Program-made: the position numbers and the translations under genes
Assembly (NCBI GenBank): GCA_034440135.1
Contig: JAWXBP010000317.1
Coordinates: forward strand, 1-64,000
Direction: 5' to 3'
From: Planctomycetia bacterium
Lineage (GTDB): Bacteria; Planctomycetota; Planctomycetia; Pirellulales; JALHLM01
Length of the DNA: 64,000 nucleotides
Shown here: in pieces, positions 33,931 to 54,420 of the stretch
Layout of the letters: each line of letters starts with the position of its first letter
Numbering within the stretch: the stretch's first letter is position 1
Notes under the pieces: model-generated
Seen by the model: only the letters and a program-made list of their open reading frames with translations
Databases searched by the model: none
Told to the model about the DNA's origin: nothing

Positions 33931-34801
33931 GGCCATCCGCCGCATCGGCCGGCTGGAGCTACGGGCACGCCACGTGGTCGAGGGATTTCTCTCGGGCATC
34001 CATCGCAGTCCGTACTTTGGGCGCTCCATCGAGTTCCTGCAGCACCGCCAATACGTGCGCGGCGACGACGTGCGCCACATCGACTGGAAAGTCTGGGGCA
34101 AGCAGGATCGGCTGTACATCAAGCAGTATGAAGAGGAAACGAACCTCCGTTGCACGCTGCTGGTCGACGTCTCCAAGTCGATGCGTTACGGCCAGGGGGC
34201 CATGACGAAGTACGACTACGCGGCCACAATCGCCACCAGCCTGGCGTACTTGCTGCTGCGTCAGCAGGACGCCGTAGGGTGCGTGGCCTTCGACGCGATT
34301 GTGCGCAGCACAATGCCATTACGCAGCAAACGCAATCACCTGATGAGCATCGTTAAGGCGCTCGAGGCCAACGATCCGTCGGAAAAAACCGACATGGGCA
34401 AGGTGCTGCGCCACGCCGCGGAGACGTTTCCCGCGCGCGGCATGATGGTGCTGATTTCCGACTTGCTCTGCGATCGCGAGAAGTTGTTTCAGGGCCTGCG
34501 GATGTTGGAACAGCGCGGGCACGACGTGCTCGTGTTCCACGTGATGGACGACGACGAGCTCGATTTTCCGTTCAGCGGCCCGACGCGCTTCGACGGACTG
34601 GAAACCGACGACCGGATTCATTGCAACCCGCGCGCCTTACGCGACGGATACATGCAGGCGCTCGAGGCGTTTCTGGAGGAAGTCCGGCTGGGCGCGGCCC
34701 GCTATCGTTGCGACTACGCGTTGTTCCGCACGAGCGATCCTTTGGACGCGGCGCTGGCCCGCTTTTTGACCCACCGCACGGCGATTCATCACCACCAGTG
34801 A
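33899..34801 (+). CDS. DUF58 domain protein (VWA-like partner of MoxR)
   Basis: 300 aa. The DUF58 signature [18 protein letters not shown] is present, followed by a VWA-like strand with an intact MIDAS motif DVSKS (Asp90, Ser92, Ser94). DxSxS usually binds Mg2+ with a partner's acidic residue. No membrane helix is seen, so the protein probably acts in the cytoplasm with MoxR. The start overlaps the moxR-type gene; the stop is shared with the GTG of the next gene (GTGA). Confidence 0.92.
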
Positions 34802-37014: not shown

Positions 37015-39707
37015 ACCTCCCCATGTTATTGCTAGCGCAAACCACGCCCCGCGCGGAGTTCGAGTTCGCGCGGATTTCTACGCCCAGCGATTGGCTCTGG
37101 CCGGTGCTGGGGTTCTGCGCCGTGGCTGGCGTCGTGGCTTGGATTTATCGCCGCGACAGCGTGGAACTGCGCCCGGCTGTGGCGCGCTTGCTGGTGGCGC
37201 TCCGCCTGGCGGCGTTCCTGGGCTTGGCCATCGTCTACCTCGAACCGCAATGGCGCAACGAAGTGGAGCAGACGCACCACAGCCGCGCCGTGGTGCTGGT
37301 CGACACCAGCCAAAGCATGGCGCTCACCGACGACGGCGGCACGTCGACCGATGGCGGCGCGAGTTCGCGATTGGAACAAGTGACCGGACTGCTCGCCGGT
37401 TCGATGTTGGATAAACTGCGCGAGAAGCACGACGTGGTCGTCGCGCATTTCGATGATGAAGTGCATCAACTCGTGGTGTTGCCGCGCGCCGGATCGACGT
37501 CGTCCGCGGCCGTGACGGCCCGAACCAGTGGCATCGTCGATTCGCGCCTGCCAACAGTCTTCTACGCAACGGTCGCCGCCGCAGTGCTGGCGATCGTCGC
37601 AATTGCGTGCCGCCTGGCGTTGCCGCATTGGTCGTTGACCGTCACGTCGCTCGTCGCGATGATCGGCCTGAGCGCCGGCGTCGCGTATCTGGCGTCGCGC
37701 TCGCAGCCCATCGATTGGCTCACGCTCGCGGGGCTGGGACAAGAAATCGAAACGCCAGCGACGGAACGTTCGCCCACGGACCAAGACAAAGCAAACAAAG
37801 CGAATACCACCGATTGGCGACAAGCGCTCGCGGCAGGCGGATCGGAAACGCGATTGGGCCAATCGCTGCGGCAAGTCATCTACGACGAAGCCGGGCAACC
37901 ACTATCCGGCGTCGTGCTGATCACCGATGGGCGACAAAACGCGGGACTCGATCCCCGCGCGGCGATTGCCGCGGCGCTCGAGGCGAAGACGCCGGTGCAT
38001 GTGATCGGCGTCGGTTCCGATCGCCAGCCGGTCAACGTGCGGATCAGCGACTTCACCGCGCCGACGCGCGCCTTTCCCGGCGACAGTTACACCGCCACCG
38101 GCTTCGTGCAAGCGCACGGCCTGGCCGGACAGACGGTGACGATTGAACTGCAATCGCGACAAACGACCTCGGACCTCGCCGCGCCGGCGCCGTCGCGCAA
38201 CGAGGGGACCGAAACGGTGACGTTGCCCGCCGACGGCGAAGTGCTGCCGGTGCGGTTTCAATTGAAACCGGAAGACGTCGGCCGCCGCACGTTGCGCGTG
38301 GAAGTCAAAGCGCCGCCCGGCGACTTGAATACGGCTGACAACGCGCAAGAGGCCGAGATCGAAGTCGTCGATCGACAGACCCGCGTGTTGCTGTTTGCCG
38401 GCGGGCCGACGCGGGAATACACCTTCCTGCGTAATCAATTGAATCGCGACAAGTCGATGCAAGTCGACGTACTGCTACAGACCGCGCAGCCGGGCATTTC
38501 GCAAGACGCGCGCCGCGTGCTGGCGGATTTTCCTTCGACGCGCACTGAGATGTTCGAGTATGACGTCGTCGTGGCGTTCGATCCGAACTGGCGAGCCCTC
38601 AAGCCGGAACAAGTCGATCTGCTGGAAACCTGGGTCGCCGAACAAGCCGGCGGATTGATCGCCGTGGCGGGCCCCGTTTACACCGAAGGCTGGTCGCAAG
38701 ATCCGGCGCTCGGCAAGATCCGCGCGCTCTATCCGGTGGAAATGCAACGTCGCTACGCGGCGCTCAGCGACGCGAAGTACGGCTCGAAAGATCCTTGGCC
38801 GATTGAGTTTTCACACGAGGGCGAAGCGGCGGAGTTCCTTTGGCTGGCCGACACCGCTTCCGCGGCGCGCCAGGCTTGGAGTCAGTTCCGCGGCGTCCAC
38901 GGTTACTTCGCCGTCCGCGGCGCGAAGCCCGGGGCCACGGTCTATGGCCGCTACTCCGACCCCCGCGCGGCCTCGACCGACGGCAAGCCGGTCTATCTGG
39001 CGGATCAGTTCTACGGTTCGGGGCGCGTGTTCTACCTCGGCAGCGGCGAGATGTGGCGGCTGCGGAGCGTGGACGACGCGTACCTGGAGCGCTTTTACAC
39101 GAAACTGATTCGCCACGTCTCCCAGGGGCGCCTAGCCCGCGGTTCCAATCGCGGCGTACTGCTCGTGGAGCGCGACCGCTACCTGGTCGGCAACACCGTC
39201 GTGGTCCGCGCTCAATTGAACGATGCGCAGTTGCAGCCGCTCGCTTCGCCGGCGGTGTCGCTCGACGTCGCCGCGCCGGATGGCACGCTCCAGAACGTGC
39301 GGTTGGTCGCGGATCCCGCCCGTGTGGGAAGTTTTCAAGGACAATTCGCCGTGCGTCACGAGGGGGCGTATCGGCTGGAACTGTTGGTCCCACAGAGTCA
39401 GCAGGAACGGCTCACGCGGCGGATTCAAGTGCGTATGCCGGACTTGGAACGCGAAAGCCCGGAACGAAACGACGCGTTGCTGAGTGAAATCGCCGGCGGC
39501 ACCGGCGGCGTCTATTACGTGGGACTCGCCGCGCCGTTCAGCCGCCCGGTCGGAGAGGACCTGGCCAGCGTGTTGAAAGACAAGAGCCGCGTAGTGACCC
39601 TGCCGCTCGCGCCGCGCAAGCTGTGGGACAACCACTGGCTGCTCGGCTGGGTCGTGGGAGCGCTTTCGTTGGAATGGTTGGTACGAAGATTGTCTCGACT
39701 CGCCTAA
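37011..39707 (+). CDS. Membrane VWA / amidotransferase-like protein
   Basis: 898 aa. Hydrophobic helices at about 28-45 and 60-80 precede a VWA domain starting AVVLVDTSQSMALTDDGG, with an intact MIDAS (DTSQS). Two further helices interrupt the VWA domain at about 183-203 and 210-230, and the VWA continues with SGVVLITDGRQNAGLDPRAA. A second half has a GATase1-like region (VLLFAGGPTREYTFLRN, YDVVVAFDPNWRAL, AGGLIAVAGPVYTE) and a beta-rich end. A last helix (HWLLGWVVGALSLEWLV) anchors the C-terminus. It forms with the two upstream proteins the membrane partner set expected for MoxR. Confidence 0.87.
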   Translation: MNLPMLLLAQTTPRAEFEFARISTPSDWLWPVLGFCAVAGVVAWIYRRDSVELRPAVARLLVALRLAAFLGLAIVYLEPQWRNEVEQTHHSRAVVLVDTSQSMALTDDGGTSTDGGASSRLEQVTGLLAGSMLDKLREKHDVVVAHFDDEVHQLVVLPRAGSTSSAAVTARTSGIVDSRLPTVFYATVAAAVLAIVAIACRLALPHWSLTVTSLVAMIGLSAGVAYLASRSQPIDWLTLAGLGQEIETPATERSPTDQDKANKANTTDWRQALAAGGSETRLGQSLRQVIYDEAGQPLSGVVLITDGRQNAGLDPRAAIAAALEAKTPVHVIGVGSDRQPVNVRISDFTAPTRAFPGDSYTATGFVQAHGLAGQTVTIELQSRQTTSDLAAPAPSRNEGTETVTLPADGEVLPVRFQLKPEDVGRRTLRVEVKAPPGDLNTADNAQEAEIEVVDRQTRVLLFAGGPTREYTFLRNQLNRDKSMQVDVLLQTAQPGISQDARRVLADFPSTRTEMFEYDVVVAFDPNWRALKPEQVDLLETWVAEQAGGLIAVAGPVYTEGWSQDPALGKIRALYPVEMQRRYAALSDAKYGSKDPWPIEFSHEGEAAEFLWLADTASAARQAWSQFRGVHGYFAVRGAKPGATVYGRYSDPRAASTDGKPVYLADQFYGSGRVFYLGSGEMWRLRSVDDAYLERFYTKLIRHVSQGRLARGSNRGVLLVERDRYLVGNTVVVRAQLNDAQLQPLASPAVSLDVAAPDGTLQNVRLVADPARVGSFQGQFAVRHEGAYRLELLVPQSQQERLTRRIQVRMPDLERESPERNDALLSEIAGGTGGVYYVGLAAPFSRPVGEDLASVLKDKSRVVTLPLAPRKLWDNHWLLGWVVGALSLEWLVRRLSRLA

Positions 39708-39787: not shown

Positions 39788-41980
39788 ATGCCCGCACCTG
39801 CTTCACCTTTGATCGGTCCCACGCTCGGCGAGATTCTGCGCCGATTGCGGCGGAGAATCCGCGTCCAGGTGTTGCTGTATGGGTTGGCAAGTCTCGTGCT
39901 GTTGGCCGGTCTGGTGTTCTGGCTGTCGCTGGCCATCGACTGGACGTTCGAGCCGCCGCGCGAAGTGCGAATCGGCGTGATCGTCGTGGCACTCGCCGCA
40001 GGCGTCGCGGTCATCTATGCCCTTATATTGCGACGGTTATTCGTGCCGTTATCGGATGCGAACCTGGCGTTGTTGCTGGAGCGCAAGTTTCCGCAGTTCA
40101 AAGACGGCCTGATCACGGCCGTGCAATTGGCTGCGCGCCGCTCCACCGGCATGTGGCATCAGCAGATGCTGGCGGAAACGATCGGCCGGGCGCGCGAGAC
40201 GTTGCGCGCCGCCGATTTGGACGCCGTATTGAACGCCGCGCCGACCGTGCGTCGTGGCGTCTGGGCGACCGTGCTCACCGGCAGTGTGATGGTCTTCGCC
40301 GTGGCGATGCCCGATCAATTCCGCGTCTGGCTGGAGCGCTCGCTGCGACTGAGCGAGGCGCGTTGGCCCCGGTATACGTCGCTGCACGTGGTGGGCTTGG
40401 GCCCTGACAACTCCATCAAAGTGGCGCGCGGCGGCGACGTGGCGCTCGTCGTGCAGGCCGACGTTGCGAAGCAAGTGCCGCGCACGGTGGAGATCCGCTA
40501 CGAGACCGAAGACGGCGCGCGGGGCCGCGAACCGATGGATCGCGTCGGCCGCGCAATTCCCGGCCAGGATCCGTTCCAGGAGTTCGGTTACACGTTCGCC
40601 GGCGTGCTCACGTCGCGGACGTTCGACGTGCTGGGGGGCGACGACCGCATCGACGACTTGCGGATTCAAGTCGTCGATATGCCGACGCTCGAAGGCATGA
40701 CGCTGGAGTGCGACTTTCCCGATTACACAGGGCGCAGCACGCGCACGCTCGCCGCGGCGGGCGCGATCCAATTGCCGCAAGGGACCCGCGTCACGCTCGA
40801 CGCCACGGCCAGTAAGCCGCTCGAATGGGCCGAGGTGACCATCGCCTCGGGGCGCGACTCCTTGAACGCCGAGCGCGTCACGCCGGACCAGCAATCGCCG
40901 CGGAAGTTTCAAATCGCGCTCGAAGCGCTCACGTCGGACACGACGTTGTTGATTCGCCTGCGCGATACCGACGGCATCGAGAACCGCGAGCCGCTACGCG
41001 TGGCGATGACGGTCGTGCCGGACGGCCCGCCGCAGATCAACGCGCAACTCGCCGGAATCGGCACCGCTGTCACGCCCCAGGCGCAGTTGCCGATGCGCGG
41101 CGCGATCAACGACGACTACGGCGTGGCCGATGCGCGGTTCGAGTACGCCGTCGGCGACGAAGCGCCGCGCGAGCAAATAGTCTTCAAGCACGAGGCGGAC
41201 GCGGCGCAGCCCGCCGCGCAGCGCCCGTTGGACGCGGCGCTCGATTTGCGCGAACTGGGACTTGCGCCAGGACAAAAACTCGCGGTTGGGCTCCGTGCTC
41301 GGGATAACTTCGCTTTAGCGGATGCGCCGCATGACGCGACGGGCGAACGCTATGTGCTGGATATCGTGACCGCCGAAGACTTGCTTCAGTTGCTGCAGAC
41401 GCGAGAATTAGGGATGCGGCGTCGCTTTGAGACCTTGCTCGACGAGGCGACCTCGCTGCGCGACAGCTTGCCGGCATTGGCGGACGCCAAGGATCAGGCC
41501 CAGACGGCCGACGACGCCCAGGTCGGGCTGGCGCTGGCCATCCAACGGATGGTGCAGTTGAGCCGCAAGGACGCACAGGAGACGTTGGGCGTGGCGGGGG
41601 CCTTCGCCGACATGCGGGAAGAGCTGGACAATAACCGGATCGACAACAGCGAACTGAAAGACCGGCTGCAAACGCGGATCGCCGACCCGTTGCGACGCTG
41701 CGGCGAGGAGATGTTCGGGGAACTGGACCGGAGATTGGAATTGATCCGCACCGCCGCGGCGGACGACAATGCACGGCGCGAGGCGGTCGAAGGAGCGGTG
41801 CAGCAGGCCGACGCGATCCTGCTGGAAATGCAGCGGGCGCTCGACCAGATGCTGGAACTGGAAAGTTTGAACGAGGCGGTGGCCCTGCTCCGCGAAATCA
41901 TCGCGTCGCAGGACCAGGTAACCGAGTCGACCAAGCAACGCCGGACCGAAAAAGCCCGGCAGTTGCTCGAAGGGGAATAA
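39788..41980 (+). CDS. DUF4175-like membrane protein
   Basis: 730 aa. Two N-terminal helices (about 30-55 and 60-82) and one at about 158-176 are followed by beta-rich Ig-like domains (about 195-490; YETEDGARGREPMDRV, MTLECDFPDYTGRSTRTL, VVPDGPPQINAQLAGIG). Long coiled-coil helices make up the last 200 residues (MLELESLNEAVALLREI). The architecture matches DUF4175-type proteins that lie next to MoxR/VWA genes. No catalytic motif is visible. It begins 80 nt after the VWA gene and ends 19 nt before the next. Confidence 0.75.
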   Translation: MPAPASPLIGPTLGEILRRLRRRIRVQVLLYGLASLVLLAGLVFWLSLAIDWTFEPPREVRIGVIVVALAAGVAVIYALILRRLFVPLSDANLALLLERKFPQFKDGLITAVQLAARRSTGMWHQQMLAETIGRARETLRAADLDAVLNAAPTVRRGVWATVLTGSVMVFAVAMPDQFRVWLERSLRLSEARWPRYTSLHVVGLGPDNSIKVARGGDVALVVQADVAKQVPRTVEIRYETEDGARGREPMDRVGRAIPGQDPFQEFGYTFAGVLTSRTFDVLGGDDRIDDLRIQVVDMPTLEGMTLECDFPDYTGRSTRTLAAAGAIQLPQGTRVTLDATASKPLEWAEVTIASGRDSLNAERVTPDQQSPRKFQIALEALTSDTTLLIRLRDTDGIENREPLRVAMTVVPDGPPQINAQLAGIGTAVTPQAQLPMRGAINDDYGVADARFEYAVGDEAPREQIVFKHEADAAQPAAQRPLDAALDLRELGLAPGQKLAVGLRARDNFALADAPHDATGERYVLDIVTAEDLLQLLQTRELGMRRRFETLLDEATSLRDSLPALADAKDQAQTADDAQVGLALAIQRMVQLSRKDAQETLGVAGAFADMREELDNNRIDNSELKDRLQTRIADPLRRCGEEMFGELDRRLELIRTAAADDNARREAVEGAVQQADAILLEMQRALDQMLELESLNEAVALLREIIASQDQVTESTKQRRTEKARQLLEGE

Positions 41981-41999: not shown

Positions 42000-43820
42000 A
42001 TGACCGCTCGCTATGTCGCCGTCGCCCTATTGCTCAGCGCAATCTTCATCGCGCCAGCGGGTGTCGTGTGGGCGCAAGCGCCGGCCGCGGAACCAGCCGC
42101 TCCGGCGGCCCCCGCCGCGCAGCCCGGCGCGGCCTTGCCGGATCGCCAGCAACAGGTGGCGCAGCAATTCAAGCAGCTCGAAGCGGTGCTGTTGCGGATG
42201 GCGGAATTGACCGACGATCCGCAGCGCGCGGCGCTGTTGCGCAAGGCGGTCGCGCAGAGCAAGAATCAATTGATTGGCGAACAGCTCGCCGAGATCGCAC
42301 AGTTGTTGGAGCAAGATCGCCTGGCCAACGCGCTCACGGATCAGGGCGAAGTGCGCGTCGACATGGTGAAGTTGCTGGAGTTGCTCTTAAGCGAAGACCG
42401 CGGGCAGAACCTCGACGAGGAAAAGCGCCGGTTGCAGCAGTGGATTCGCGAGATCGGCAATCTGATCAAGGACCAGCAAGGCTTGCAGGGGGAAACCGAG
42501 GGCGGTTCGGAAACGAAGGACCTCGCGGAGCGGCAAGGCAAGCTCGGCGAGAAGACCGGCCGCATGTCGGATGAAATCAAGGCAGCCGAAGACCGCGAAC
42601 GCGGTGAAGCCAACCCGAGCGCAGAGTCATCCGGCGATTCCAACAAACAGCCTGCGAATGGCGAAGCGCCCAAGCCGGAAGACAAGCCGGCGACGGACGA
42701 AGGCAAACCCGGCGACGATGCGAAACCGACAGAGCCAGCCGATGATGAAAAGCCGTCGGATGACAAACCCGCCGATGGCAAGCCGACCGATGGAAAGCCA
42801 GCGGACGGAAAGCCGAGTGATGGCAAGCCCAGCGAGGGAAAACCATCCCAGGGAGAGCCATCCGAATCGGAACCGTCCGAAGGGCAACCCTCCGAGGGGC
42901 AACCGAGCGAAGCGCCGCCGAGCCAAGGACAACGCTCGCAGGGCGAGCCCTCCGAGACGCCGCTGGGCGATCCGCAACCGGCGGAGGAGCAACCGCAGAA
43001 TCCCACGCAGCAACGGTTGAAGTCCGCACAGCAACGGATGGAAGCGGCACAGAAAAAACTAAAGGACGCGCAACGCAAAGAGGCGACCGAAGATCAGGAA
43101 GCGGCGATCCGCGAATTGCGCGAGGCCAAGGCGGAGCTGGAAAAGATTCTCCAACAACTGCGCGAAGAAGAGATGCAGCGCACGTTGGCGATGTTGGAAC
43201 AACGTTTCCGCAAGATGCTCGCGGCGCAGATCGACGTCTACGAGGCCACGCAACGGCTCGATAGCGTGCCGCTCGAACAGCGGACGCGGAACGACGAAAT
43301 CGAAGCCGGTCGCCAGAGCCGACGTGAGGCGAGCATCGCCGACGACGCCAGGCGCGCGCTGGAATTACTGAAACAGGACGGCACCGCGGTGGCGTTTCCG
43401 GAAGCGGTCGAGCAATTGATCGAAGATATGGACCAAACCACGACCTGGCTGGGCGAAGCCAAGGTCGGTGAACTGACGCAGGCCATGGAGCAGGACATCA
43501 TCGCCGCGCTCGAAGAAATGTTGGCCGCGCTCGAAAAAGCCCAGCAAGACTTGGAGCAAAAGCAACAGCAATCTGGAGAGCAGCAGCAACAGGGAGAGCC
43601 GGAGGAGCCGCCGCTGGTGGATTCTCTGGCCGAAATCAAGTTGATTCGCTCGCTGCAGATGTGGGTCAACAAGCGCACGATGTTCTACAGCAAACGCCTG
43701 GACGGCAAGCTGCCTGCGGAAGAGCAGCAGGACGTTGAAGCAGGCCTGCGGAAACTGGCGGAACGCGAGCAGCGCATTTACGAAACCACGCGCGACATCG
43801 CCCAGGAGAAAAACCAATGA
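42000..43820 (+). CDS. Exported coiled-coil protein with a GKP-type low-complexity linker
   Basis: 606 aa with signal peptide (MTARYVAVALLLSAIFIAPA then AGVVWAQ). Helical, Gln- and Glu-rich stretches (about 45-195 and 340-600) flank a linker at about 200-335 built of tetra- and pentapeptides: KPADGKPTDGKP, then KPSEGKPSQGEPSE and PSEGQPSEGQPSE. The linker is rich in Pro, Ser, Glu and Lys and should be extended and disordered. The RBS GGAGG is 8 nt before the ATG. I recognise no family. Position inside the MoxR/VWA cluster and the ATGA overlap with the next gene suggest a structural part of the same machine. Confidence 0.8.
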   Translation: MTARYVAVALLLSAIFIAPAGVVWAQAPAAEPAAPAAPAAQPGAALPDRQQQVAQQFKQLEAVLLRMAELTDDPQRAALLRKAVAQSKNQLIGEQLAEIAQLLEQDRLANALTDQGEVRVDMVKLLELLLSEDRGQNLDEEKRRLQQWIREIGNLIKDQQGLQGETEGGSETKDLAERQGKLGEKTGRMSDEIKAAEDRERGEANPSAESSGDSNKQPANGEAPKPEDKPATDEGKPGDDAKPTEPADDEKPSDDKPADGKPTDGKPADGKPSDGKPSEGKPSQGEPSESEPSEGQPSEGQPSEAPPSQGQRSQGEPSETPLGDPQPAEEQPQNPTQQRLKSAQQRMEAAQKKLKDAQRKEATEDQEAAIRELREAKAELEKILQQLREEEMQRTLAMLEQRFRKMLAAQIDVYEATQRLDSVPLEQRTRNDEIEAGRQSRREASIADDARRALELLKQDGTAVAFPEAVEQLIEDMDQTTTWLGEAKVGELTQAMEQDIIAALEEMLAALEKAQQDLEQKQQQSGEQQQQGEPEEPPLVDSLAEIKLIRSLQMWVNKRTMFYSKRLDGKLPAEEQQDVEAGLRKLAEREQRIYETTRDIAQEKNQ

Positions 43821-44869
43821 GACCGCTGGCTCTCCTCATGGTCGCGGCGGCGCTCGGCGGTACTTCCATCGCCTTGGCCGCCAATGAAACCACGACAAAG
43901 TCCTTGCGCGCGTCCACTTCGGACGAAGCGAAGGGCCAATTGTTCGCCTGGCTCGATGCGCAAAACGCGTCGCCGGAGTTGCGGCTCCAAGTGGAAACGC
44001 AATGGGCGGAGTCCGAAGCCTCGACCGGCGATTTGCTGGAGCGCGTAGCGCGCGCCATTGCGATCGTCGACGAGCGCGCTCGCCCGCTGTTGGAATCCAG
44101 CCAGGCCGCGGCGCTGCGAGCGCCGTTACCGGACATCGCCTGGCTGCAAGCGGCGGACGTGGCGCCGTTCATGAGCAACAACTTGCGTCTATGGTACGGC
44201 CGGTCGCTCGCGCAGCGCGAATATTACGACGAATCCTCGGCGCTGCTCACCGACCTGGAACCGCGCAACGTCGTCGACCCGGCCGCGCTGTTGTTCTATC
44301 AAGCGGTCGTGCATCAAAGGCTGCTCGCCAAGGACCCGGGCTTGAAAGCGATCGACGCCTTGCTGGACGATGTCGATGCCGCGCCGCGGCGATACTTGAA
44401 GCTCGCCGCGTTGCTGCGCACCGATCTCGCTGCGCTCGAAGACGAATCGCTCGAACATATTTCGCGGCGGATGGAGAACATCGAACGCCACCTTGGTTTG
44501 GGCCGGACAGACCAGAAAGTTCGCGACATCGAAGACGGCGTGATCGAGTCGCTCGACAAGATGATTAAGAAGCTCGAAGACCAAGCGAAACAAGCGGCGC
44601 AGTCCTCAGGAAAAGGCGGCCAGCAATCGGGCCGCGCGCAAGGAATTAAGCCCGGCGGTAGTCCGGCGCAACAGAGCACGCCAGCGGGCGGCCGGGGCGC
44701 CGGCGAGGTCAATCCTCGCGATCTGGGAAGCGAAGACGGCTGGGGCAACCTGCCGCCGAAGGAACGCGAAGAAGCCTTGCAACAAATCGGTCAGGATTTC
44801 CCGGCTCACTACCGCGACGTAATTGAGCAATACTTTCGCAAGCTCGCGGACGAGGGACGGGAGAACTAA
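43817..44869 (+). CDS. Exported helical protein of unknown function
   Basis: 350 aa. A signal peptide (MRPLALLMVAAALGGTSIALA) is followed by helices about 30-240, including LWYGRSLAQREYYDESSALL, which looks like a TPR-like hairpin. A Gly/Gln/Ser-rich linker (about 262-300) and a C-terminal PPKEREEALQQIGQDFPAHY helix ending YRDVIEQYFRKLA follow. That last element occurs at the C-terminus of many planctomycete proteins in this kind of cluster (recollection). The start overlaps the previous stop (ATGA). Confidence 0.78.
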   Translation: MRPLALLMVAAALGGTSIALAANETTTKSLRASTSDEAKGQLFAWLDAQNASPELRLQVETQWAESEASTGDLLERVARAIAIVDERARPLLESSQAAALRAPLPDIAWLQAADVAPFMSNNLRLWYGRSLAQREYYDESSALLTDLEPRNVVDPAALLFYQAVVHQRLLAKDPGLKAIDALLDDVDAAPRRYLKLAALLRTDLAALEDESLEHISRRMENIERHLGLGRTDQKVRDIEDGVIESLDKMIKKLEDQAKQAAQSSGKGGQQSGRAQGIKPGGSPAQQSTPAGGRGAGEVNPRDLGSEDGWGNLPPKEREEALQQIGQDFPAHYRDVIEQYFRKLADEGREN

Positions 44870-44933: not shown

Positions 44934-46124
44934 ATGCATAACCTGCTCGCCGTACTGCTGCTCGCCGCCGCGCCCAGCGTGGAATTGCGCACCTTGGATG
45001 GGCGGACGCTGGTGGGCGAATTGGAGAACTGCACGGCGACGAGCGTGACGATCAAGACCGCGGACGGCGTCACCGAGTTGGCCGCGGAGGAGGTCTGGGA
45101 GTTCGCGCCGACAGGCAATCGTGAGTTGCCGCGGAGCGCGCCGGAAGGCTTGGTGGTGCGCCTCACCGATGGTTCGCAGCTGGTGGCCGACAAGTTTTCC
45201 GTAAGCGAAGGCAAGGCGACGGCGCGGCTCGCCGGCGATCGAAGTGTCGACGCGCCGACCTCGGGCGTGGCGCATGTGCGTTTCGCGGTGCCGGAAGAAC
45301 TGGACGCACAATGGCAGGAAGTATTGGAGACCAAGGCGACGGGCGATCTAGTCGTGATCAAAAAAGACGGCGCGCTCGATTTTCTGGAAGGCGTGCTGGG
45401 CGATACGGATGACGACGGCGGATTCGCGTTCACGCTCAATGGCGACACGCTCGCGGTGAAGCGCTCGCGAATGGCCGGCATCGTGTACTTTCACAAAGCG
45501 ACCGATCCGCTTCCCAAGGCCGTCGCCATCGTTAGCGACGTGTTTGGCAATCAGTTTTCCGCGTCGGAAATCAAATTGGAAGCTGGCGTCCTCTGCGGTG
45601 CGACGCCGTCCGGCGCCGCTTGGTCTGTGCAATTGGAACAACTCCAGCGCGTCGATTTCTCGCAAGGGCGCGTGGCCTATCTCAGTGATTTGACGCCGGT
45701 CCGCGATACTTGGACGCCGTTCGTCAGCGGCGGGAAGCTGCCGAAGTCGGTCGCCGCGTTCTATGCCGCGAAGCGCGACCGGAGCCTCGAGGCGCAGGAT
45801 TTGCTCGTCGGTGGTCAGCGCTACGTGAAGGGATTGTCCCTGCACAGCCGAAGCGAAGTGGCGTATCGATTAGACGGACAGTACCGCCGATTCCAGGCGT
45901 TGGCCGGCATCGACGACCGCGCCGCGGGCTTGGGAGCGGTGCGTTTGGTCATTCGCGGCGACGATCGCGTATTATGGGAAGGGGAGATTGCCGGCGCCCA
46001 ACCGCCGGAAATGCTCAATTTCGCGACGGACGATGTGCGCGTGTTGAGCATTCTCGTCGACTTCGGGGCAGGCCACGAAACGGCCGACCATTTGAACCTG
46101 TGCGACGCCAAGCTAATCCGCTGA
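44934..46124 (+). CDS. NPCBM/NEW2-domain exported protein
   Basis: 396 aa. The first 15 residues (MHNLLAVLLLAAAPS) are a short export signal. Residues 15-245 are beta-rich with two SH3-like units (VELRTLDGRTLVGELEN, VVRLTDGSQLVADKFS). Residues about 255-396 match the NPCBM galactose-binding-like domain: GGQRYVKGLSLHSRSEVAYRL in shortened form, FQALAGIDDRAAGLGAVRLVI and a final HLNLCDAKLIR. NPCBM domains bind carbohydrate beside glycosidases. It is 64 nt after the previous gene and 13 nt before the protease gene. Confidence 0.83.
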   Translation: MHNLLAVLLLAAAPSVELRTLDGRTLVGELENCTATSVTIKTADGVTELAAEEVWEFAPTGNRELPRSAPEGLVVRLTDGSQLVADKFSVSEGKATARLAGDRSVDAPTSGVAHVRFAVPEELDAQWQEVLETKATGDLVVIKKDGALDFLEGVLGDTDDDGGFAFTLNGDTLAVKRSRMAGIVYFHKATDPLPKAVAIVSDVFGNQFSASEIKLEAGVLCGATPSGAAWSVQLEQLQRVDFSQGRVAYLSDLTPVRDTWTPFVSGGKLPKSVAAFYAAKRDRSLEAQDLLVGGQRYVKGLSLHSRSEVAYRLDGQYRRFQALAGIDDRAAGLGAVRLVIRGDDRVLWEGEIAGAQPPEMLNFATDDVRVLSILVDFGAGHETADHLNLCDAKLIR

Positions 46125-46137
46125 CCAGGGTGATTCG

Positions 46138-47907
46138 ATGAAACAGAGCTACGCCGCTGGAATCATCGCCGCAGCCTTGCTGGCCGCCGCGCCGGTGGCG
46201 CACGCCGACGTCGATCCCACGGTACTGGACGCCGAGCGGGAACGCATCGAGGCGATGAGCCGGGCGATGTCCCCGTCGATCGCCATTTTCGCCGGCGGCC
46301 AAGGGGGCGGGTCCGGCGTGATTATCTCCACGGACGGCTACGCGCTCAGTAACTTCCACGTAACGAGCGCCGCCGGCAACGCGATGAAATGCGGCCTCTC
46401 CGACGGCGGGTACTACGACGCGGTGCTCGTGGGCCTCGATCCCACCGGCGACGTGGCGCTGATTAAAGTCTTGGGACGCGAACGCTTCCCCGCCGCGGAA
46501 CTCGGCGATAGCGATCTGGTGCGGCAAGGGGACGCGGTCTTCGCCATTGGCAATCCGTTCCTGCTGGCGACCAACTTGCAGCCGTCGATTTCGTATGGCA
46601 TCGTCTCCGGCGTGCATCGCTATCAGTATCCGGCCGGCACGATCCTGGAATACGCCGATTGCATCCAGACCGACGCCGCGATCAACCCCGGCAATTCCGG
46701 CGGGCCGCTGTTCAACAGCAGCGGGCAGTTGATTGGCATCAATGGCCGCGGTTCGTTCGAAAAGCGCGGCCGTGTCAACGTCGGCGTAGGCTACGCGATT
46801 TCGATCAACCAGATCAAGCATTTTCTCGGTTGCTTGAAGGGAGGACGGATCGTCGATCACGCCACGCTCGGCGCGACCGTGGCGGCCGATGACGATGGCC
46901 GGATTCTGGTGAGCGATATTCTCGAAGAGAGCGACGCCTATCAACAAGGCCTGCGCTACAACGACGAAATCGTCCGCTTCGCCGATCGTCGCATCGCCTC
47001 GGTGAACGCGTTCAAAAATGTGCTCGGAACGCTGCCGAAAGATTGGCGAGTCCCGTTGGTGTATCGCCGTCGTGACGTCGAAACGACGCTGATGGTCCGC
47101 CTGGCCGGTGTGCATCGCAGCGGTGAGTTGGAAAAAATGGTCGAAGGGGGCGAAGTCGAGCCGCCAGGACCGAAACCTGACGATCCAGACCAAGAACGAA
47201 AGCCCGACGCTCCGCCAGCGCCGAAGGAGATTCCCGCGGCCGAACAGGAACCGTCGACCGAACTGCCCGAAGCGGTGAAGCCGTTTTACGAAGCCAAGTC
47301 GGGCTATGCCAATTACCACTTCAATCGCGTCGAGCGCGATCGCGTTTGGAAAGCGTTTCAGTCGAATGGTGATTTCTCCGCGCTGACCGGCACCTGGTCG
47401 TTGAGCGGCGATCTGCCGACCGGCGGTGAAGTGCAGTTCGATCTCGGCGACGCCGCCTGTGCCTGCACGGTGCCGGCAGGGCAATTCGGTTTCGCGCTCA
47501 ACGAAAACTTGAGCGAGGCGCTCGATCCTCCCAGAAGCGGCGGCATGCTGGCGGCGCTCTCGCTGTGGCGGCGATTGCTCGTGAAAGGGCCGGCGCAGTT
47601 CGGCGACGTCACTTACCTGGGCGCGATGCCGCTGGAGCGCTGGGGCGAACAACTCGACGTCTTCGCCGCGATGCATGCCGGCGTGGAATGCCGGTTCTAT
47701 TTCGAACCGACGACGGGCCAACTTGCCGCGCTCGAGTTTTACCCCACCGACGACGCGGCGCCGTGCCGCTTGCATTTCCGTGAGCATTTGGTCGTCGACG
47801 GAAGGCATTGGCCGAGCTTTGTCGAGGTCTCGTTCGGCAGCACGCATTTCGGGGACTTCCGTTTGAAGGAGTTCAGAGTCAAGCCGCCGATGGGGAACGG
47901 AACATGA
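46138..47907 (+). CDS. HtrA/DegP-like trypsin-type protease with PDZ and an extra C-terminal domain (active triad)
   Basis: 589 aa. Signal peptide (about 1-23, ending PVAHA). The S1C protease domain has a full triad: His74 in ALSNFHV, Asp105 in DPTGDVALI and Ser187 in NPGNSGGPL. One PDZ domain follows (about 250-320, GRILVSDILEESDAYQQG). A Pro/Asp/Lys-rich linker (about 340-385) leads to a unique 200-residue C-terminal domain with ATG-proximal FYEAKSGYANYHFNRVERDR, a Cys pair (DAACACTV) and beta strands; I do not recognise it. The gene's stop overlaps the start of the next protease-like gene by 4 nt. It is the only one of three paralogues that can be catalytic. Confidence 0.9.
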   Translation: MKQSYAAGIIAAALLAAAPVAHADVDPTVLDAERERIEAMSRAMSPSIAIFAGGQGGGSGVIISTDGYALSNFHVTSAAGNAMKCGLSDGGYYDAVLVGLDPTGDVALIKVLGRERFPAAELGDSDLVRQGDAVFAIGNPFLLATNLQPSISYGIVSGVHRYQYPAGTILEYADCIQTDAAINPGNSGGPLFNSSGQLIGINGRGSFEKRGRVNVGVGYAISINQIKHFLGCLKGGRIVDHATLGATVAADDDGRILVSDILEESDAYQQGLRYNDEIVRFADRRIASVNAFKNVLGTLPKDWRVPLVYRRRDVETTLMVRLAGVHRSGELEKMVEGGEVEPPGPKPDDPDQERKPDAPPAPKEIPAAEQEPSTELPEAVKPFYEAKSGYANYHFNRVERDRVWKAFQSNGDFSALTGTWSLSGDLPTGGEVQFDLGDAACACTVPAGQFGFALNENLSEALDPPRSGGMLAALSLWRRLLVKGPAQFGDVTYLGAMPLERWGEQLDVFAAMHAGVECRFYFEPTTGQLAALEFYPTDDAAPCRLHFREHLVVDGRHWPSFVEVSFGSTHFGDFRLKEFRVKPPMGNGT

Positions 47908-48947
47908 TGCCACGAGGCGCTAAAATCGAGTTGCGGCGCGCATGGCTTTGCGCGGTGGCGCTCTGCGCGTTAGGCGTGCAACATGCATCGGCGGCGCCGC
48001 TAGCCGACGTCGTGGAAAGCGCGCAACCAAAAATCGCCAAGCTCTACGGCGCTGGTGGCCTGCGCGGATTGGAAGCCTATCAAAGCGGCGTCGTCATCTC
48101 TCCTTCCGGGCATATTCTCACCGTGTGGAGCTACGTCCTCGACGCCGAATCGATCACCGTCGTGTTGAACGACGGTCGCCGCTTTGAAGCGGAGTTGGCC
48201 GGCGCGGATCCCAAATTGGAAATCGCAGTGCTGAAGCCGCGCGAGGAGTTAGACGAGATTCCGTACTTCGATCTGGAACAAGCTCCTTCGGCGGGCGGCG
48301 GCACGCGCATCGTTGCGTTTAGCAATTGTTTCGGCGTCGCCGCTGGCGATGAAGCGGCCAGCGTGCAAGCCGGCACCGTGATGGCGGTGACACCGCTCAA
48401 CGCGCATCGAGGCGTCTTCAAGGCGACCTATCGCGGACCGGTCTATGTGTTGGACGCCGTGACGAGCAACCCCGGTGCAGCCGGAGGCGCGATTACCGAC
48501 GACGATGGACACTTGGTCGGCTTGATCGGGCGCGAGCTGCGCAACTCGGCTAACGGAACCTGGCTCAACTACGCGCTCCCGATCGAAGAATTGCGCGCGT
48601 CGGTGACGCGTATTCAAGCGGGCGAACTCGCGCCGGCGCAACCGATCGCGCCTAACAACGTCGGCGCGGCCAATCCGTTTAAGCTCGCCACGTTGGGCAT
48701 CGTGCTGGTGCCGGACGTGTTGGATCGCACGCCGGCCTATGTGGATGCCGTCGTCGCCGGATCGCCGGCCGCCAAAGCGGGGCTCAAGCCGGACGATTTA
48801 TTCGTTACGATCAGCGGCCGCTTGGTGCAATCGCGCGGCTTGATGGAAGAAGAGCTCGCGCGCTGCGAAGCGGACAAGCCCATCAAAGTCACTGTGCTGC
48901 GCGGTGACGACGAATTGCTGGAACTGGAGTTGACGCCGACGCCCTAG
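47904..48947 (+). CDS. HtrA-like pseudoprotease with PDZ (all three triad residues replaced)
   Basis: 347 aa. A signal segment (about 10-31) is followed by an S1C-type fold: YQSGVVISPSGHILTVWSYV, then ADPKLEIAVLKP, then SNPGAAGGAITDDDGHLVGL. At the catalytic positions, His is Ser76, Asp is Glu106 and Ser is Ala193; the flanking glycine and hydrophobic framework is conserved. One PDZ domain ends the protein (about 255-345, YVDAVVAGSPAAKAGLKPDD). The conserved fold with lost catalysis argues for binding, scaffolding or regulation. The ATG overlaps the stop of the active protease (ATGA), so the two are co-made. A longer frame upstream is rejected because it lies inside the previous gene. Confidence 0.88.
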   Translation: MMPRGAKIELRRAWLCAVALCALGVQHASAAPLADVVESAQPKIAKLYGAGGLRGLEAYQSGVVISPSGHILTVWSYVLDAESITVVLNDGRRFEAELAGADPKLEIAVLKPREELDEIPYFDLEQAPSAGGGTRIVAFSNCFGVAAGDEAASVQAGTVMAVTPLNAHRGVFKATYRGPVYVLDAVTSNPGAAGGAITDDDGHLVGLIGRELRNSANGTWLNYALPIEELRASVTRIQAGELAPAQPIAPNNVGAANPFKLATLGIVLVPDVLDRTPAYVDAVVAGSPAAKAGLKPDDLFVTISGRLVQSRGLMEEELARCEADKPIKVTVLRGDDELLELELTPTP

Positions 48948-48958
48948 GCCGCCACCGC

Positions 48959-50923
48959 ATGAAATGCTTGAACTCGAAAACGCCCGCGATCCTCGTCATG
49001 TGCTGTGCCCTGAGCGCACTTGCGCACGCGGCCATCGCTCAGGATGATCTCTCCGCCAAGGAAGAGGCCGCCCTGCGCGCTGCTGTCGCCCAGGTCGCGT
49101 CGAGCGTGGTGAAGATCGAAGCTCTGGGTGGCCTGGAAAAAGTCGGCGACGTCCTGTTGGGCGACGGTCCCACGACCGGGCTGATTGTTACCCCGGACGG
49201 CTACATCGTCTCGAGCATCTTCAATTTCGCACAAAAGCCTGCATCGATCTTGGTCACGTTGCCGGACGGCACGCGCACGCCGGCCACTTGGGTTGCTGCC
49301 GATAAGAGCCGGATGCTGGTGCTGCTCAAAGTGAACGCTGCCACGCCGTTGTCGGTAGCGGAAGCCAGTCCCTTGGCCGATCTCCGTCCGGGGCAATGGG
49401 CGATCGCCGTGGGACGCACGTTCGATACCTCGCTGCCGCAGTATTCCGTAGGCATTGTGAGCGCGCTCGATCGCATCTGGGGCAAAGCCGTCCAGACCGA
49501 CGCGATGGTCTCGCCGAACAACTACGGCGGGCCGCTCGTGGATATCCAAGGGCGCGTGATCGGCGTGCTGGCGCCGTTTTCGCCGGATGCCGCCGGAGAG
49601 TCAGCGGGCGTCGAGTGGTATGACTCCGGGATTGGCTTCGCCGTGCCTTATGAGCACATCCAGCAGGCGTTGCCGCGACTGCGCGAAGGAAAGGATCTCA
49701 CGTCCGGCGTGCTGGGCATCAGCTTGAAGTCTAAGGACATCTACGGCGAGCCGCCGCTGATCGCCATCTGCCGTTCCGATTCGCCGGCCTACCAGGCCGG
49801 GTTGCGCGTCGGCGATCGCATCGTGGCGATTGACGGCCGCGCGGTCGACTCTCAGGCCGAGGTGAAGCACGCCATCAGCCCGCGATACGCTGGCGATAGC
49901 TTGCAAGTGAAAGTCGCACGGGGCGACGCGGAGTTCGAGCGCGCGATCACGCTGATCGAAAAGCTGAAACCCTACCGCCACGCGTTTCTCGGCATCTTGC
50001 CGCGCCGTGACGTCGGCGAGGATGGCGTCCGCGTCCGTTTCGTCTATCCCGACAGCCCCGCGGCGAAAGCGGGCATGCAGATCGATGATCGCCTCGTTTC
50101 CATCGACGCCGCGCAAGTTGCGGACGCAGCAACAGTGCGCGAACGCTTGAACGGCCTCGCGCCGGAGCAATCGGTACGCGTCGAATTTCGCCGTGGCGAC
50201 AAATCCCACTATCCCGAGATCAAACTCGCGGCGCTTCCCGAAACGGTTCCGGATGCACTGCCTGCTGCGGCCGAGGCGACAGCAGCGGCAGCGGGGGAAC
50301 GGCCGGCCGTGGGACAATTCACGCTGGAGCTGCCGGAGTACCCGAATCGGTCGCGAGTGTACGTGCCTGCCGATTACGATCCTCGGCGCGCTTACGGACT
50401 CCTGGTCTATCTGCATGCGGCGGGTGGCGAGGAAGAACAGCAGACGCTCGACCGTTGGAAAGCGATGTGCGATCGCGACAGCTTGATCTTGCTTGCACCC
50501 CAGGCGACAGAACCCAAGCGTTGGCAGCCGGAGGAATTGCCGTACATTCGCCGCGCCGTGGAGCACATCACCGGACGTTACACGATCGACCCATCGCGGA
50601 CCGTGGCCGTGGGGCGTGAAATGGGCGCTTCGCTGGCCTACCAACTCGGCTTCCAGCAACGCGATTTGTTCCGCGGCGTGGCGGCCATCGACGGCCCATT
50701 CGCGGCGCGGCCGACCGACAACGATCCGGCCGAGCGCCTGGCGTTTTATGTCGCCTTCGCCAAATCCTCCCCGCACGCCGGCATCTCGGTGAAGGCCATC
50801 GAAATGTTGCGCGAATTGCACTATCCTGTCACCACGCGCGACCTCGGCGACGCCCCGCGCGAGCTGAACGAGACGGAACTCGGCGAACTCAGCCGGTGGA
50901 TCGATACCCTGGATAAGCTGTAG
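48959..50923 (+). CDS. HtrA-like pseudoprotease with two PDZ domains and a degenerate alpha/beta-hydrolase domain
   Basis: 654 aa. Signal segment about 8-27. The trypsin-like domain has DGYIVSSIFNF, ADKSRMLVLLKV and SPNNYGGPLVD; at the triad positions His is Phe88, Asp is Met119 and Ser is Tyr189. PDZ 1 (about 250-335) reads SPAYQAGLRVGDRIVAIDGR, PDZ 2 (about 340-425) SPAAKAGMQIDDRLVSIDAA. Residues about 455-654 are an esterase-type alpha/beta-hydrolase: YGLLVYLHAAGGEEE, DPSRTVAVGREMGASLAYQL. The nucleophile elbow is GREMG, with Glu554 instead of Ser. Both enzymatic folds thus look dead. It starts 11 nt after the second protease-like gene. Confidence 0.87.
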   Translation: MKCLNSKTPAILVMCCALSALAHAAIAQDDLSAKEEAALRAAVAQVASSVVKIEALGGLEKVGDVLLGDGPTTGLIVTPDGYIVSSIFNFAQKPASILVTLPDGTRTPATWVAADKSRMLVLLKVNAATPLSVAEASPLADLRPGQWAIAVGRTFDTSLPQYSVGIVSALDRIWGKAVQTDAMVSPNNYGGPLVDIQGRVIGVLAPFSPDAAGESAGVEWYDSGIGFAVPYEHIQQALPRLREGKDLTSGVLGISLKSKDIYGEPPLIAICRSDSPAYQAGLRVGDRIVAIDGRAVDSQAEVKHAISPRYAGDSLQVKVARGDAEFERAITLIEKLKPYRHAFLGILPRRDVGEDGVRVRFVYPDSPAAKAGMQIDDRLVSIDAAQVADAATVRERLNGLAPEQSVRVEFRRGDKSHYPEIKLAALPETVPDALPAAAEATAAAAGERPAVGQFTLELPEYPNRSRVYVPADYDPRRAYGLLVYLHAAGGEEEQQTLDRWKAMCDRDSLILLAPQATEPKRWQPEELPYIRRAVEHITGRYTIDPSRTVAVGREMGASLAYQLGFQQRDLFRGVAAIDGPFAARPTDNDPAERLAFYVAFAKSSPHAGISVKAIEMLRELHYPVTTRDLGDAPRELNETELGELSRWIDTLDKL

Positions 50924-50986: not shown

Positions 50987-51331
50987 ATGAATACGTTGAG
51001 CGAAACGGATCCGCGGCGTAATTTGCTCGGCGTGATCGCGCTCGTTGCTTTGCTGGCCGGCGCGGTGCTCTACTTTGTCGACGGCGCGCATTCGCGCTAT
51101 CTGGAATGGACCAGCGCCTGCCTGCGCGTGGGCGCCGTGCTCGGCGCGGTCTGGCTGGCGATGCCGGAGTTTCGCCGACCGGGCAATCGCTGGCTCGTGG
51201 CGGCCATTCTGGCGGCCTTTGTCGTGCTGGCCTGGCGACCTAGACTTTTCCTGATCGCCGCGGTGCTGTTCGTCGTGGCCTGGTTCTTGCGGCCGAGGGG
51301 GTCGGCTGCGATTGAACCGCGGAGGCGCTGA
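50987..51331 (+). CDS. Small membrane protein, last gene of the cluster
   Basis: 114 aa with four hydrophobic stretches (about 14-30, 42-60, 68-84 and 86-103). No motif is recognised. The final residues IEPRRR and the stop codon are encoded by a repeat element of the ACCGCGGAGGCGCTGAGA family, so the original C-terminus has probably been replaced. It is 63 nt after the last protease-like gene and likely part of the same transcript. Confidence 0.72.
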   Translation: MNTLSETDPRRNLLGVIALVALLAGAVLYFVDGAHSRYLEWTSACLRVGAVLGAVWLAMPEFRRPGNRWLVAAILAAFVVLAWRPRLFLIAAVLFVVAWFLRPRGSAAIEPRRR

Positions 51332-53274: not shown

Positions 53275-53517
53275 CTACTTCGCCTGACGTGCCGCCATGA
53301 TCGCCCGCACCAGCTCTTCCGGCATCTTCGGCGGTTTCTGCTCTTCTTCCTGGCAGGCCGATTTCCCCAGGCAGATCGCCTGCTGGTAGGTTTTCATGTA
53401 CGCCACGCAGGGCGGGCAGCAGGCCAGGTGCTTTTCGAAGTATTCCCGTTGCTCGGGCGGCAATTCGCCGTCGCAGTATTCCATCAGGAATTCGACCAAC
53501 TCACGGCAGCTCAGCAT
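53275..53517 (-). CDS. Zinc-finger anti-sigma factor (zf-HC2-like)
   Basis: 80 aa. The motif CDGELPPEQREYFEKHLACC then PPC gives the H-x3-C-x2-C zinc-binding set (His30, Cys33/34, Cys37) with Cys15 upstream. Such ZAS domains hold an ECF sigma factor inactive and release it on redox or zinc change. A C-terminal tail CQEEEQKPPKMPEELVRAI replaces the membrane segment, so this is the soluble type. Its ATG shares one base with the sigma stop (TAATG). Confidence 0.85.
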   Translation of the reverse strand: MLSCRELVEFLMEYCDGELPPEQREYFEKHLACCPPCVAYMKTYQQAICLGKSACQEEEQKPPKMPEELVRAIMAARQAK

Positions 53518-54149
53518 TACAGGCCTCCTCGCAAATGGGGATCGAGGAGCGCACGGAGGGCCTGCCTGGCTCGATGAAGTCGGGTTTTGACGGCGTTCGA
53601 GGTCATGCCGAGGAGTTTCGCGGTTTCGTCGGTGTCTCGTTCTTCGATGTCCCGGAGCAGCAATACGATACGGTAGCTTTCGGGCAGAGCGTCGATCGAG
53701 CGGCGGACCAGATCCTTGGTTTCCGCCTTTTCCAGCGCCGCCAAGCCGCCGTCGCGCCATTCCGAGGCTGGCGTCGCATGATGCCCATCTTCCAGAAACT
53801 TGGGCAGCAGCTCGTCGCCCGAATGCTCCGCCGGACGGGATTTCCGGGTTCTGAGTTTCATCAAGGCCGCGTTCACGGCGATCCGGTGAAGCCAGGTGCC
53901 AAGCCGAGACTGTCCCTCGAAGCGGTCGAGGGCCTTGAAGGCGGACAGGAAGGCCTCCTGGACCGCGTCCTGGGCGTCCTCTTCGCTGCCGAGGAACCGT
54001 CGGGTGACCGACAGCATCCGCCCGCCATGGTCCCGCACGAGCTGCTCGAACGCCGCGGCGTCGCCTGCCCGCAGTCGCTCTAGAATGGCCCGCTCGTCGG
54101 ACGGTAAGTCCTGGGTGGCAAGATCGGCTTCCGGCGGCACTTGGCTCAT
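53517..54149 (-). CDS. ECF-type RNA polymerase sigma factor
   Basis: 210 aa. Region 2 (AFEQLVRDHGGRMLSVTRRF, EEDAQDAVQEAFLSAFKAL) and region 4 (LPESYRIVLLLRDIEERDTDE, AKLLGMTSNAVKTRLHRARQ) are complete. ATG 54149 (MSQVPPEADLA) is chosen over an upstream TTG 13 codons earlier. Coupled to a soluble zf-HC2 anti-sigma, it probably answers a redox or metal signal and likely controls its own operon. Confidence 0.93.
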   Translation of the reverse strand: MSQVPPEADLATQDLPSDERAILERLRAGDAAAFEQLVRDHGGRMLSVTRRFLGSEEDAQDAVQEAFLSAFKALDRFEGQSRLGTWLHRIAVNAALMKLRTRKSRPAEHSGDELLPKFLEDGHHATPASEWRDGGLAALEKAETKDLVRRSIDALPESYRIVLLLRDIEERDTDETAKLLGMTSNAVKTRLHRARQALRALLDPHLRGGL

Positions 54150-54214
54150 GTTGGATAGTATTCTCGCCGGGCGGCCGCCGATTTTCAATGCGGCCGCAGC
54201 GCGTCACTCGGCGC

Positions 54215-54357
54215 GGGTGCCTGGGGCAGGGGCACTGGCTTCGCGGTCGCCATGGTCCAACCTGCTGGGGCTTCGTTGGACCTGTCAACGGATCGCCACG
54301 ATGCCCCAGTCGAGTTGACGTGGTAGCCCTCGTCGTTCGCCTCAGCCCCAGACACCC
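54215..54357. mobile_element. 143-bp MITE-like element with imperfect terminal inverted repeats
   Basis: It starts GGGTGCCTGGGGCAGGGGCA (54215-54234), and the other end, read on the opposite strand, is GGGTGTCTGGGGCTGAGGCG, identical at 15 of 20 positions. It contains no gene. It separates the sigma gene from the GH38-like gene and may carry either promoter. Target duplications are not clear. The rest of 54150-54420 shows nothing else. Confidence 0.5.
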
Positions 54358-54420
54358 ATCGTGGAGTTGCAGTCCCGCCACCTACTAGCCAGGCCGTAGG
54401 GCAACTAAGCTAGCTACGCC

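What the first reader, a model, noticed from the sequence alone, without database searches (positions are those of the whole stretch)
48959..50923. Protein with two dead enzyme folds: pseudo-trypsin plus alpha/beta-hydrolase with Glu in the nucleophile elbow
The C-terminal 200 residues have the esterase-type layout, but the GxSxG elbow reads GREMG, so Glu554 stands where Ser is expected. Combined with the lost protease triad, this fuses two non-catalytic folds through two PDZ domains. Such a fusion is more easily explained as a binding scaffold than as an enzyme. A Glu at the elbow is not unprecedented elsewhere, so a different chemistry is not excluded.
Basis: partly seen in the sequence, partly recalled or inferred. 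Interest (0 to 1): 0.62.

Follow-up and report, generated by a model that had tools for sequence, protein, structure and literature searches.

The report
Dead HtrA partner of live protease
This protein is a secreted HtrA-type protease that has lost its protease site and carries an esterase-like domain that has also lost its active site; it is always encoded next to one working HtrA protease and a second dead one, so it most likely assembles with and controls the working one rather than cutting anything itself.

Summary
The 654-aa protein (gene C) is a signal peptide, a triad-less HtrA protease domain, two PDZ domains and an alpha/beta-hydrolase domain (AlphaFold2 pLDDT 90.7). Glu554 sits at the nucleophile elbow, and the acid and His positions are Ser604 and Arg634. 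Glu is not special: at that position 165 aligned rows have Gln 39, Glu 36, Gly 30, Lys 12, Asp 11 and Ser only 3. A different Glu chemistry is therefore unlikely.

The larger finding is the context. C is the last of a conserved tandem trio. A always keeps His-Asp-Ser (101/101, 101/101, 104/104), B is always dead, and C has Tyr at the serine in 164/165. The trio is found in the class and in other classes of the phylum. A and B are fused in three separate lineages. C keeps the DegS Arg178 and Gln191 equivalents in 150/150, residues through which one HtrA subunit switches on its neighbour. B has lost Gln191.

Best explanation: A, B and C form a mixed HtrA complex, perhaps a heterotrimer with one working site, in which C is a trans-activating, substrate-holding pseudoprotease. 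The dead esterase is an optional docking module. Complex formation itself is not shown. Closest precedents are MamE/MamO and plant Deg7.

The parts
48959..50923 (+). Gene C: 654-aa secreted HtrA-like pseudoprotease with two PDZ domains and a dead esterase-like domain (the finding)
   Evidence: ORF and translation; Pfam; AlphaFold2 pLDDT 90.7
48959..49042 (+). Signal peptide of C (residues 1-28, by inspection)
   Evidence: hydrophobic N-terminal stretch ending AHAAIAQ; least conserved part
49130..49687 (+). Dead HtrA/trypsin-type protease domain of C (residues 58-243)
   Evidence: Pfam Trypsin_2; profile match to DegP/DegQ E 2e-47; Foldseek DegQ/DegP E 1e-30
49220..49222 (+). Phe88 at the catalytic His position
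   Evidence: alignment to DegS
49313..49315 (+). Met119 at the catalytic Asp position
   Evidence: alignment to DegS
49472..49474 (+). Arg172, equivalent of DegS L3 Arg178, kept in 150/150 C proteins
49493..49495 (+). Gln179, equivalent of DegS Gln191, kept in 150/150 C proteins
49523..49525 (+). Tyr189 at the catalytic Ser position (164/165 rows)
49706..49939 (+). PDZ1 of C (residues 250-327)
49985..50233 (+). PDZ2 of C (residues 343-425)
50309..50920 (+). Dead alpha/beta-hydrolase (PHB-depolymerase/feruloyl-esterase-like) domain of C (residues 451-654)
50618..50620 (+). Glu554 at the nucleophile elbow
50768..50770 (+). Ser604 at the catalytic acid position
   Evidence: alignment with L157/L160
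50858..50860 (+). Arg634 at the catalytic His position
   Evidence: alignment with L157/L160
50894..50920 (+). C-terminal helix RWIDTLDKL, the best conserved stretch of the esterase-like domain
47904..48947 (+). Gene B: 347-aa secreted dead HtrA-like protein with one PDZ; ATGA overlap with A
46138..47907 (+). Gene A: 589-aa secreted HtrA-like protein with intact His74-Asp105-Ser187, one weak PDZ, and an unassigned C-terminal domain
44934..46124 (+). NPCBM-domain protein, conserved upstream neighbour
43817..44869 (+). conserved operon protein (label TPRish44), no informative Pfam match
42000..43820 (+). conserved coiled-coil-like operon protein (label coil42), no Pfam match
39788..41980 (+). 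conserved operon protein (label bat39), no Pfam match
50987..51331 (+). small hydrophobic protein, often downstream of C in relatives

Best explanation
C is a secreted HtrA-type pseudoprotease that works as a partner subunit of the live HtrA-like protease A, together with the second dead paralogue B. SHOWN: C and B lack the triad in all homologues examined and A always has it; the three genes are adjacent in one order; A, B and C are each one clade across the classes sampled; A and B are fused in three lineages; C keeps the Arg and Gln through which, in DegS, the L3 loop of one subunit acts on the LD loop of its neighbour. INFERRED: A, B and C assemble through their protease domains, HtrA proteins being trimers, into a mixed complex, possibly 1:1:1 with one active site. 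C's PDZ domains hold the substrate or a ligand, and C's Arg172/Gln179 help to set A's active site into the cutting conformation. The esterase-like domain, dead in this protein, is an optional docking or ligand-binding module, with the conserved C-terminal RWxDxLDR helix as its likely contact face.
For: Trio and order. Live/dead pattern: A His 101/101, Asp 101/101, Ser 104/104; B Ala 116 of 150 at the Ser position and no Ser seen; C Tyr 164/165. Each gene one group over the classes sampled: B 100, C 98, A 99 SH-aLRT. A-B fusions: three loci of one genus (L067, L069, L072), plus L214 and L224 in two other families. ATGA overlap of A and B. Donor residues: DegS Arg178 and Gln191 equivalents 150/150 in C and 100/100 in A; B has Val/Ile/Leu for Gln; the same in other classes. 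[quoted passage not shown] MamO lacks activity yet is needed for MamE proteolysis (PMC4794232); the degenerate protease domain of AtDeg7 takes part in trimerization (PMC3473262).
Against: No complex was modelled or measured; the structure tool takes one chain. The 1:2 gene ratio matches a trimer only by count. [quoted passage not shown] Arg178/Gln191 are general HtrA residues, so retention may be structural (though B shows that the fold tolerates loss of Gln191). C's L3 loop between them is only 6 residues, against 12 in DegS and longer still in A, so contacts cannot be identical. In C the LD residues Pro161 and Leu164 are not kept. Some genomes in the order give only weak matches and may lack the trio (for example G017).
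Confidence: 0.5

Rival explanations
1. C is a stand-alone binding scaffold (own homotrimer), using its PDZ domains and dead folds to hold periplasmic proteins, without forming a complex with A or B.
For: Both catalytic sites are lost; two PDZ domains; all characterized HtrAs are homo-oligomers (PMC11642142).
Against: Strict adjacency with A and B in one order across classes, A-B fusions, and invariant Arg/Gln donor residues in C are better explained by mixed assembly.
Confidence: 0.27
2. C is a ligand- or metal-binding pseudoprotease in the manner of MamO, with the protease fold reused for a new binding function and only loose coupling to A.
For: MamO precedent: an HtrA relative without activity that binds transition metal and also promotes MamE proteolysis (PMC4794232); invariant Tyr189 and Asn188 suggest a kept function at the dead site.
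Against: No conserved surface di-His motif was searched for or seen; the MamO model scores 28 bits against a cut-off of 800.
Confidence: 0.12
3. The C-terminal domain is still an enzyme with Glu554 as an unusual nucleophile or acid.
For: Glu occurs at the position in 36 of the 165 aligned rows; the Gly frame of the elbow is kept (552 G 61/66, 556 G 63/66).
Against: The position is Gln, Gly, Lys, Asp, Arg or Ala in most homologues; no His (Arg634) and no acid (Ser604) in this protein; position 554 is below the median conservation of the domain (rank 76 of 204 from the least conserved).
Confidence: 0.03
4. B and C are decaying pseudogene-like copies of A without a function.
For: Catalytic residues are lost; the esterase domain decays at many positions and is missing in some genera.
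Against: Open frames kept over whole classes; the dead protease domain of C is the best conserved part of the protein (mean conservation 0.73 against 0.52 for the esterase; Tyr189, Asn188, Gly190 and Gly191 66/66).
Confidence: 0.02

Closest known systems
MamE/MamO pair of magnetotactic bacteria (PMC4794232)
   Same: HtrA-family live protease and a triad-degenerate paralogue from one gene cluster; the dead one is needed for proteolysis by the live one but its own triad is not; residue 193 not Gly, as in C
   Different: Here two dead partners rather than one, Tyr rather than Thr at the Ser position, an added dead esterase domain, no magnetosome context; NCBIfam MamO scores 28 bits against a cut-off of 800
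Plant Deg7 (clade III Deg/HtrA, PMC3473262)
   Same: One live and one degenerate HtrA protease domain working together; the dead domain is reported to take part in trimerization; resembles the A-B fusions found here
   Different: Deg7 is a single chain with four PDZ domains; in the window A, B and C are separate genes, and a third dead member carries an esterase-like domain
DegP/DegQ/DegS (HtrA/Do family)
   Same: Protease plus PDZ architecture and fold (Foldseek E 1e-30; profile E 2e-47); L3 Arg178 and Gln191 equivalents kept
   Different: C lacks the catalytic triad and the oxyanion Gly, has a shortened L3 loop and an extra C-terminal domain; degP_htrA_DO model 169 bits against a cut-off of 416
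PHB-depolymerase/feruloyl-esterase type alpha/beta-hydrolases (3wyd LC-Est1C, NF050058)
   Same: Fold, elbow Gly frame and order of elements
   Different: Ser, Asp and His replaced by Glu554, Ser604 and Arg634 in this protein; not a free enzyme but a C-terminal module of a pseudoprotease

Membership tests
HtrA/Do family serine protease (for C) | Trypsin-type protease domain followed by PDZ domain(s) | tested here: met
   Pfam Trypsin_2 71.7 bits (cut-off 27.6), PDZ_2 93.2 bits; folds
HtrA/Do family serine protease (for C) | His-Asp-Ser catalytic triad | tested here: not met
   Phe88/Met119/Tyr189
HtrA/Do family serine protease (for C) | Score above the curated family cut-off (TIGR02037) | tested here: not met
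   169 bits against 416.2
HtrA/Do family serine protease (for C) | Trimeric assembly through protease domains | not testable with these tools
   single-chain predictions only
HtrA/Do family serine protease (for A) | His-Asp-Ser triad | tested here: met
   His74, Asp105, Ser187 invariant
HtrA/Do family serine protease (for A) | Score above the curated family cut-off (TIGR02037) | tested here: not met
   211.3 bits against 416.2
PHB-depolymerase family esterase | alpha/beta-hydrolase fold with nucleophile elbow | tested here: met
   3wyd alignment; strand 543-553, turn at 554, helix 555-566
PHB-depolymerase family esterase | Ser-Asp-His triad | tested here: not met
   Glu554, Ser604, Arg634
PHB-depolymerase family esterase | Score above curated cut-off (NF050058) | tested here: not met
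   54.6 bits against 150
MamO-type pseudoprotease | Degenerate triad with non-Gly residue at position 193 | tested here: met
   Asn187 at the Gly193 position in P0001; Asn/Ala/Val/Ser/Ile/His in the family
MamO-type pseudoprotease | Membership of the MamO sequence family | tested here: not met
   NF040961 28.3 bits against 800
MamO-type pseudoprotease | Needed for proteolysis by the live partner | not testable with these tools
   requires deletion strains
Deg7-type live plus dead fusion | Live and degenerate HtrA protease domains in one chain | tested here: not met
   separate genes in the window; met only by relatives with A-B fusions

The most novel reading that the evidence does not exclude
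Planctomycetes carry an obligate heterotrimeric HtrA protease with one working subunit (A) and two permanently dead subunits (B and C), in which the dead subunits supply the trans-activation contacts and substrate-holding PDZ domains, and in one class C has also taken up an esterase fold, now dead in most members, as a docking module.
Probability: 0.38. Interest if true: 0.78.

Novelty: new variant of a known kind. Interest (0 to 1): 0.58.

Why it matters
HtrA proteases are described as homo-oligomers whose identical subunits switch each other on (PMC11642142). A conserved set of one live and two dead HtrA paralogues would be a natural split of the catalytic and regulatory roles of the trimer onto different chains. 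It would let activator and active site be studied separately, and it would give planctomycetes, whose cell envelope biology is poorly understood, a recognisable regulated periplasmic protease. It also shows that the eye-catching feature (Glu at the elbow) is the drifting part, while the dead protease core is the conserved part.

Tried and rejected
(1) Glu554 as a conserved alternative nucleophile: rejected by the residue counts. (2) Assembly artefact or recent fusion: rejected by order-wide and class-wide conservation. (3) Plasmid-borne copies: tblastn found only partial matches in the protease and PDZ part, where annotated to Do-type proteases, none covering 80% of the query. (5) Identification of A's C-terminal domain: the Foldseek top 50 for A were again HtrA; no Pfam match. 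(6) Literature on the MoxR/DUF58 operon in planctomycetes: no paper held; on non-catalytic alpha/beta-hydrolases: no paper held. (7) An early idea that B also lacks the oxyanion Gly was wrong: Gly is kept in 134/134 B.

Full report
WHAT IS THERE. Window 48959-50923 (+) encodes a 654-aa protein, here called C. It has a signal peptide (by inspection), a Trypsin_2 domain, two PDZ domains and a C-terminal alpha/beta-hydrolase domain. AlphaFold2 with 66 sequences gives mean pLDDT 90.7 and pTM 0.83. The N-terminal two thirds match DegP/DegQ by profile (E 2e-47) and by fold (E 1e-30). The C-terminal domain matches PHB-depolymerase/feruloyl-esterase type enzymes (3wyd, E 1.6e-12 as a family profile; NF050058 54.6 bits, below its cut-off).

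BOTH ACTIVE SITES ARE LOST. Against E. coli DegS, taken from its genome record, the His position is Phe88 (Asn89 in a second alignment), the Asp position Met119, the Ser position Tyr189 and the oxyanion Gly position Asn187. In the hydrolase domain GREMG 552-556 aligns with GHSMG of 3wyd. In the model a strand ends at 553 and a helix begins at 555, so Glu554 is at the elbow. The acid and His positions are Ser604 and Arg634, placed with the help of homologues that keep them.

GLU IS NOT THE POINT. In an alignment of 165 C rows, residue 554 is Gln 39, Glu 36, Gly 30, Lys 12, Asp 11, Arg 8, Ala 8, Ser 3; 15 rows have a gap there, nearly all of them proteins without the domain. The Gly frame of the elbow is kept, but the middle residue is no better conserved than the average position of the domain. 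In a tree built on the protease and PDZ columns only, the well-supported clade of 95 rows that holds the window protein has no member with the His motif of a complete triad. Two members of a neighbouring clade, L157 and L160, have Ser, a GDxD acid and HxYP, and several of their neighbours keep the acid and His without the Ser. The simplest history is that the domain was a working esterase when it joined and lost its site more than once; direction was not tested formally. Some genera of the same order have a short C without PDZ2 and without the hydrolase domain, in the same operon position. So the dead esterase is an accessory.

THE TRIO. Directly upstream lie A (46138-47907, 589 aa) and B (47904-48947, 347 aa); A and B overlap by ATGA. 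All three are secreted HtrA-like proteins (signal peptides by inspection). In relatives the order bat39 - coil42 - TPRish44 - NPCBM - A - B - C (often followed by the small protein) is kept in the order and in a second family of the class, including Blastopirellula marina DSM 3645 (L143) and a Gimesia assembly (L170). In other classes of the phylum it is kept with a C that lacks the esterase domain. A always has its triad (His 101/101, Asp 101/101, Ser 104/104); B has Ala in 116 of 150 at the Ser position and Ser in none seen; C has Tyr in 164 of 165. A tree of protease domains gives A, B and C as three separate, well-supported groups across classes, so the dead state of B and C is old. More distant clusters (L218-L223, L225) again combine one live with one or two dead members, mostly in another gene order. 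A and B are fused into one chain in L067, L069, L072 (one genus), L214 and L224: three lineages.

A MECHANISTIC CLUE. In DegS an Arg in loop L3 (Arg178) and Gln191 belong to the cluster through which one subunit stabilises the active form of the neighbouring protease domain (PMC11642142). Aligned to DegS, C keeps Arg and Gln in 150 of 150 proteins and A in 100 of 100, while B has lost the Gln (Val, Ile, Leu) and mostly the Arg. C-type proteins in other classes keep both too. A protein that has lost every catalytic residue but kept the residues used to switch on a neighbour looks like a trans-activator. The loop between the two residues is short in C (6 residues, against 12 in DegS and longer still in A), so it may not respond to PDZ ligand as DegS does. 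This is inference.

MOST LIKELY FUNCTION. A, B and C form a mixed periplasmic HtrA complex with one working site, C acting as activator and substrate holder through its PDZ domains. Shown: dead sites, trio, fusions, conserved donor residues. Inferred: assembly, stoichiometry, activation, and the docking role of the hydrolase domain, for which the best conserved stretch is the C-terminal RWxDxLDR helix and not the cleft.

COMPARISON. MamE/MamO is the nearest functional precedent: MamO has no activity and a non-Gly residue 193, yet is needed for MamE-dependent proteolysis (PMC4794232). Plant Deg7 joins a live and a degenerate protease domain, and the dead one takes part in trimerization (PMC3473262). 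C is a member of neither: it falls far below the MamO model's cut-off, and it is not a live-dead fusion. [quoted passage not shown] No paper describing this trio or operon was found in the held library, which is not proof that none exists.

LIMITS. No complex could be modelled. Genome samples carry codes, not names, and class membership comes from those codes. How widely the trio occurs in the phylum was not counted exactly: clear C-type matches were listed for about 40 of 246 sampled genomes, and the list was truncated.

Noticed in passing
L157:7956-9992 and L160:7006-9051: C homologues whose esterase domain keeps a complete Ser-Asp-His set (HTYSNGG / HSFSSGG, GDKD / GDQD, HKYP / HEYP), unlike nearly all others.
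   Followed up: partly
L067:3160-5994, L069:534-3431, L072:4005-6803, L214:4945-8814, L224:4282-7236: Natural A-B fusions of 933-1290 codons (stop to stop): one live and one dead HtrA domain in one chain, resembling plant Deg7.
   Followed up: partly
window 46138-47907, residues about 393-582 of A: C-terminal domain of the live protease A: confidently predicted helix plus beta-rich fold without any Pfam match.
   Followed up: partly
window 39788-41980 and 42000-43820: Two large operon proteins without Pfam matches, conserved upstream of the HtrA trio, and preceded in the window by MoxR, DUF58, BatA-type and VWA genes (32797-39707).
   Followed up: partly
L228-L234, L236, L237: Genera of the same order whose C is short (380-450 codons), without PDZ2 and esterase domain, in the same operon position.
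   Followed up: yes
L218-L223, L225: More divergent HtrA clusters with one live and one or two dead members, mostly in another gene order; the C-type dead member has Val, Thr, Asp, Phe or, in L220, Ser at the nucleophile position.
   Followed up: partly
window 53517-54188 (-) and the end of ORF 53275-54381 (-): Looks like an ECF sigma factor followed by a short zinc-finger anti-sigma-like protein (by reading the translations).
   Followed up: no
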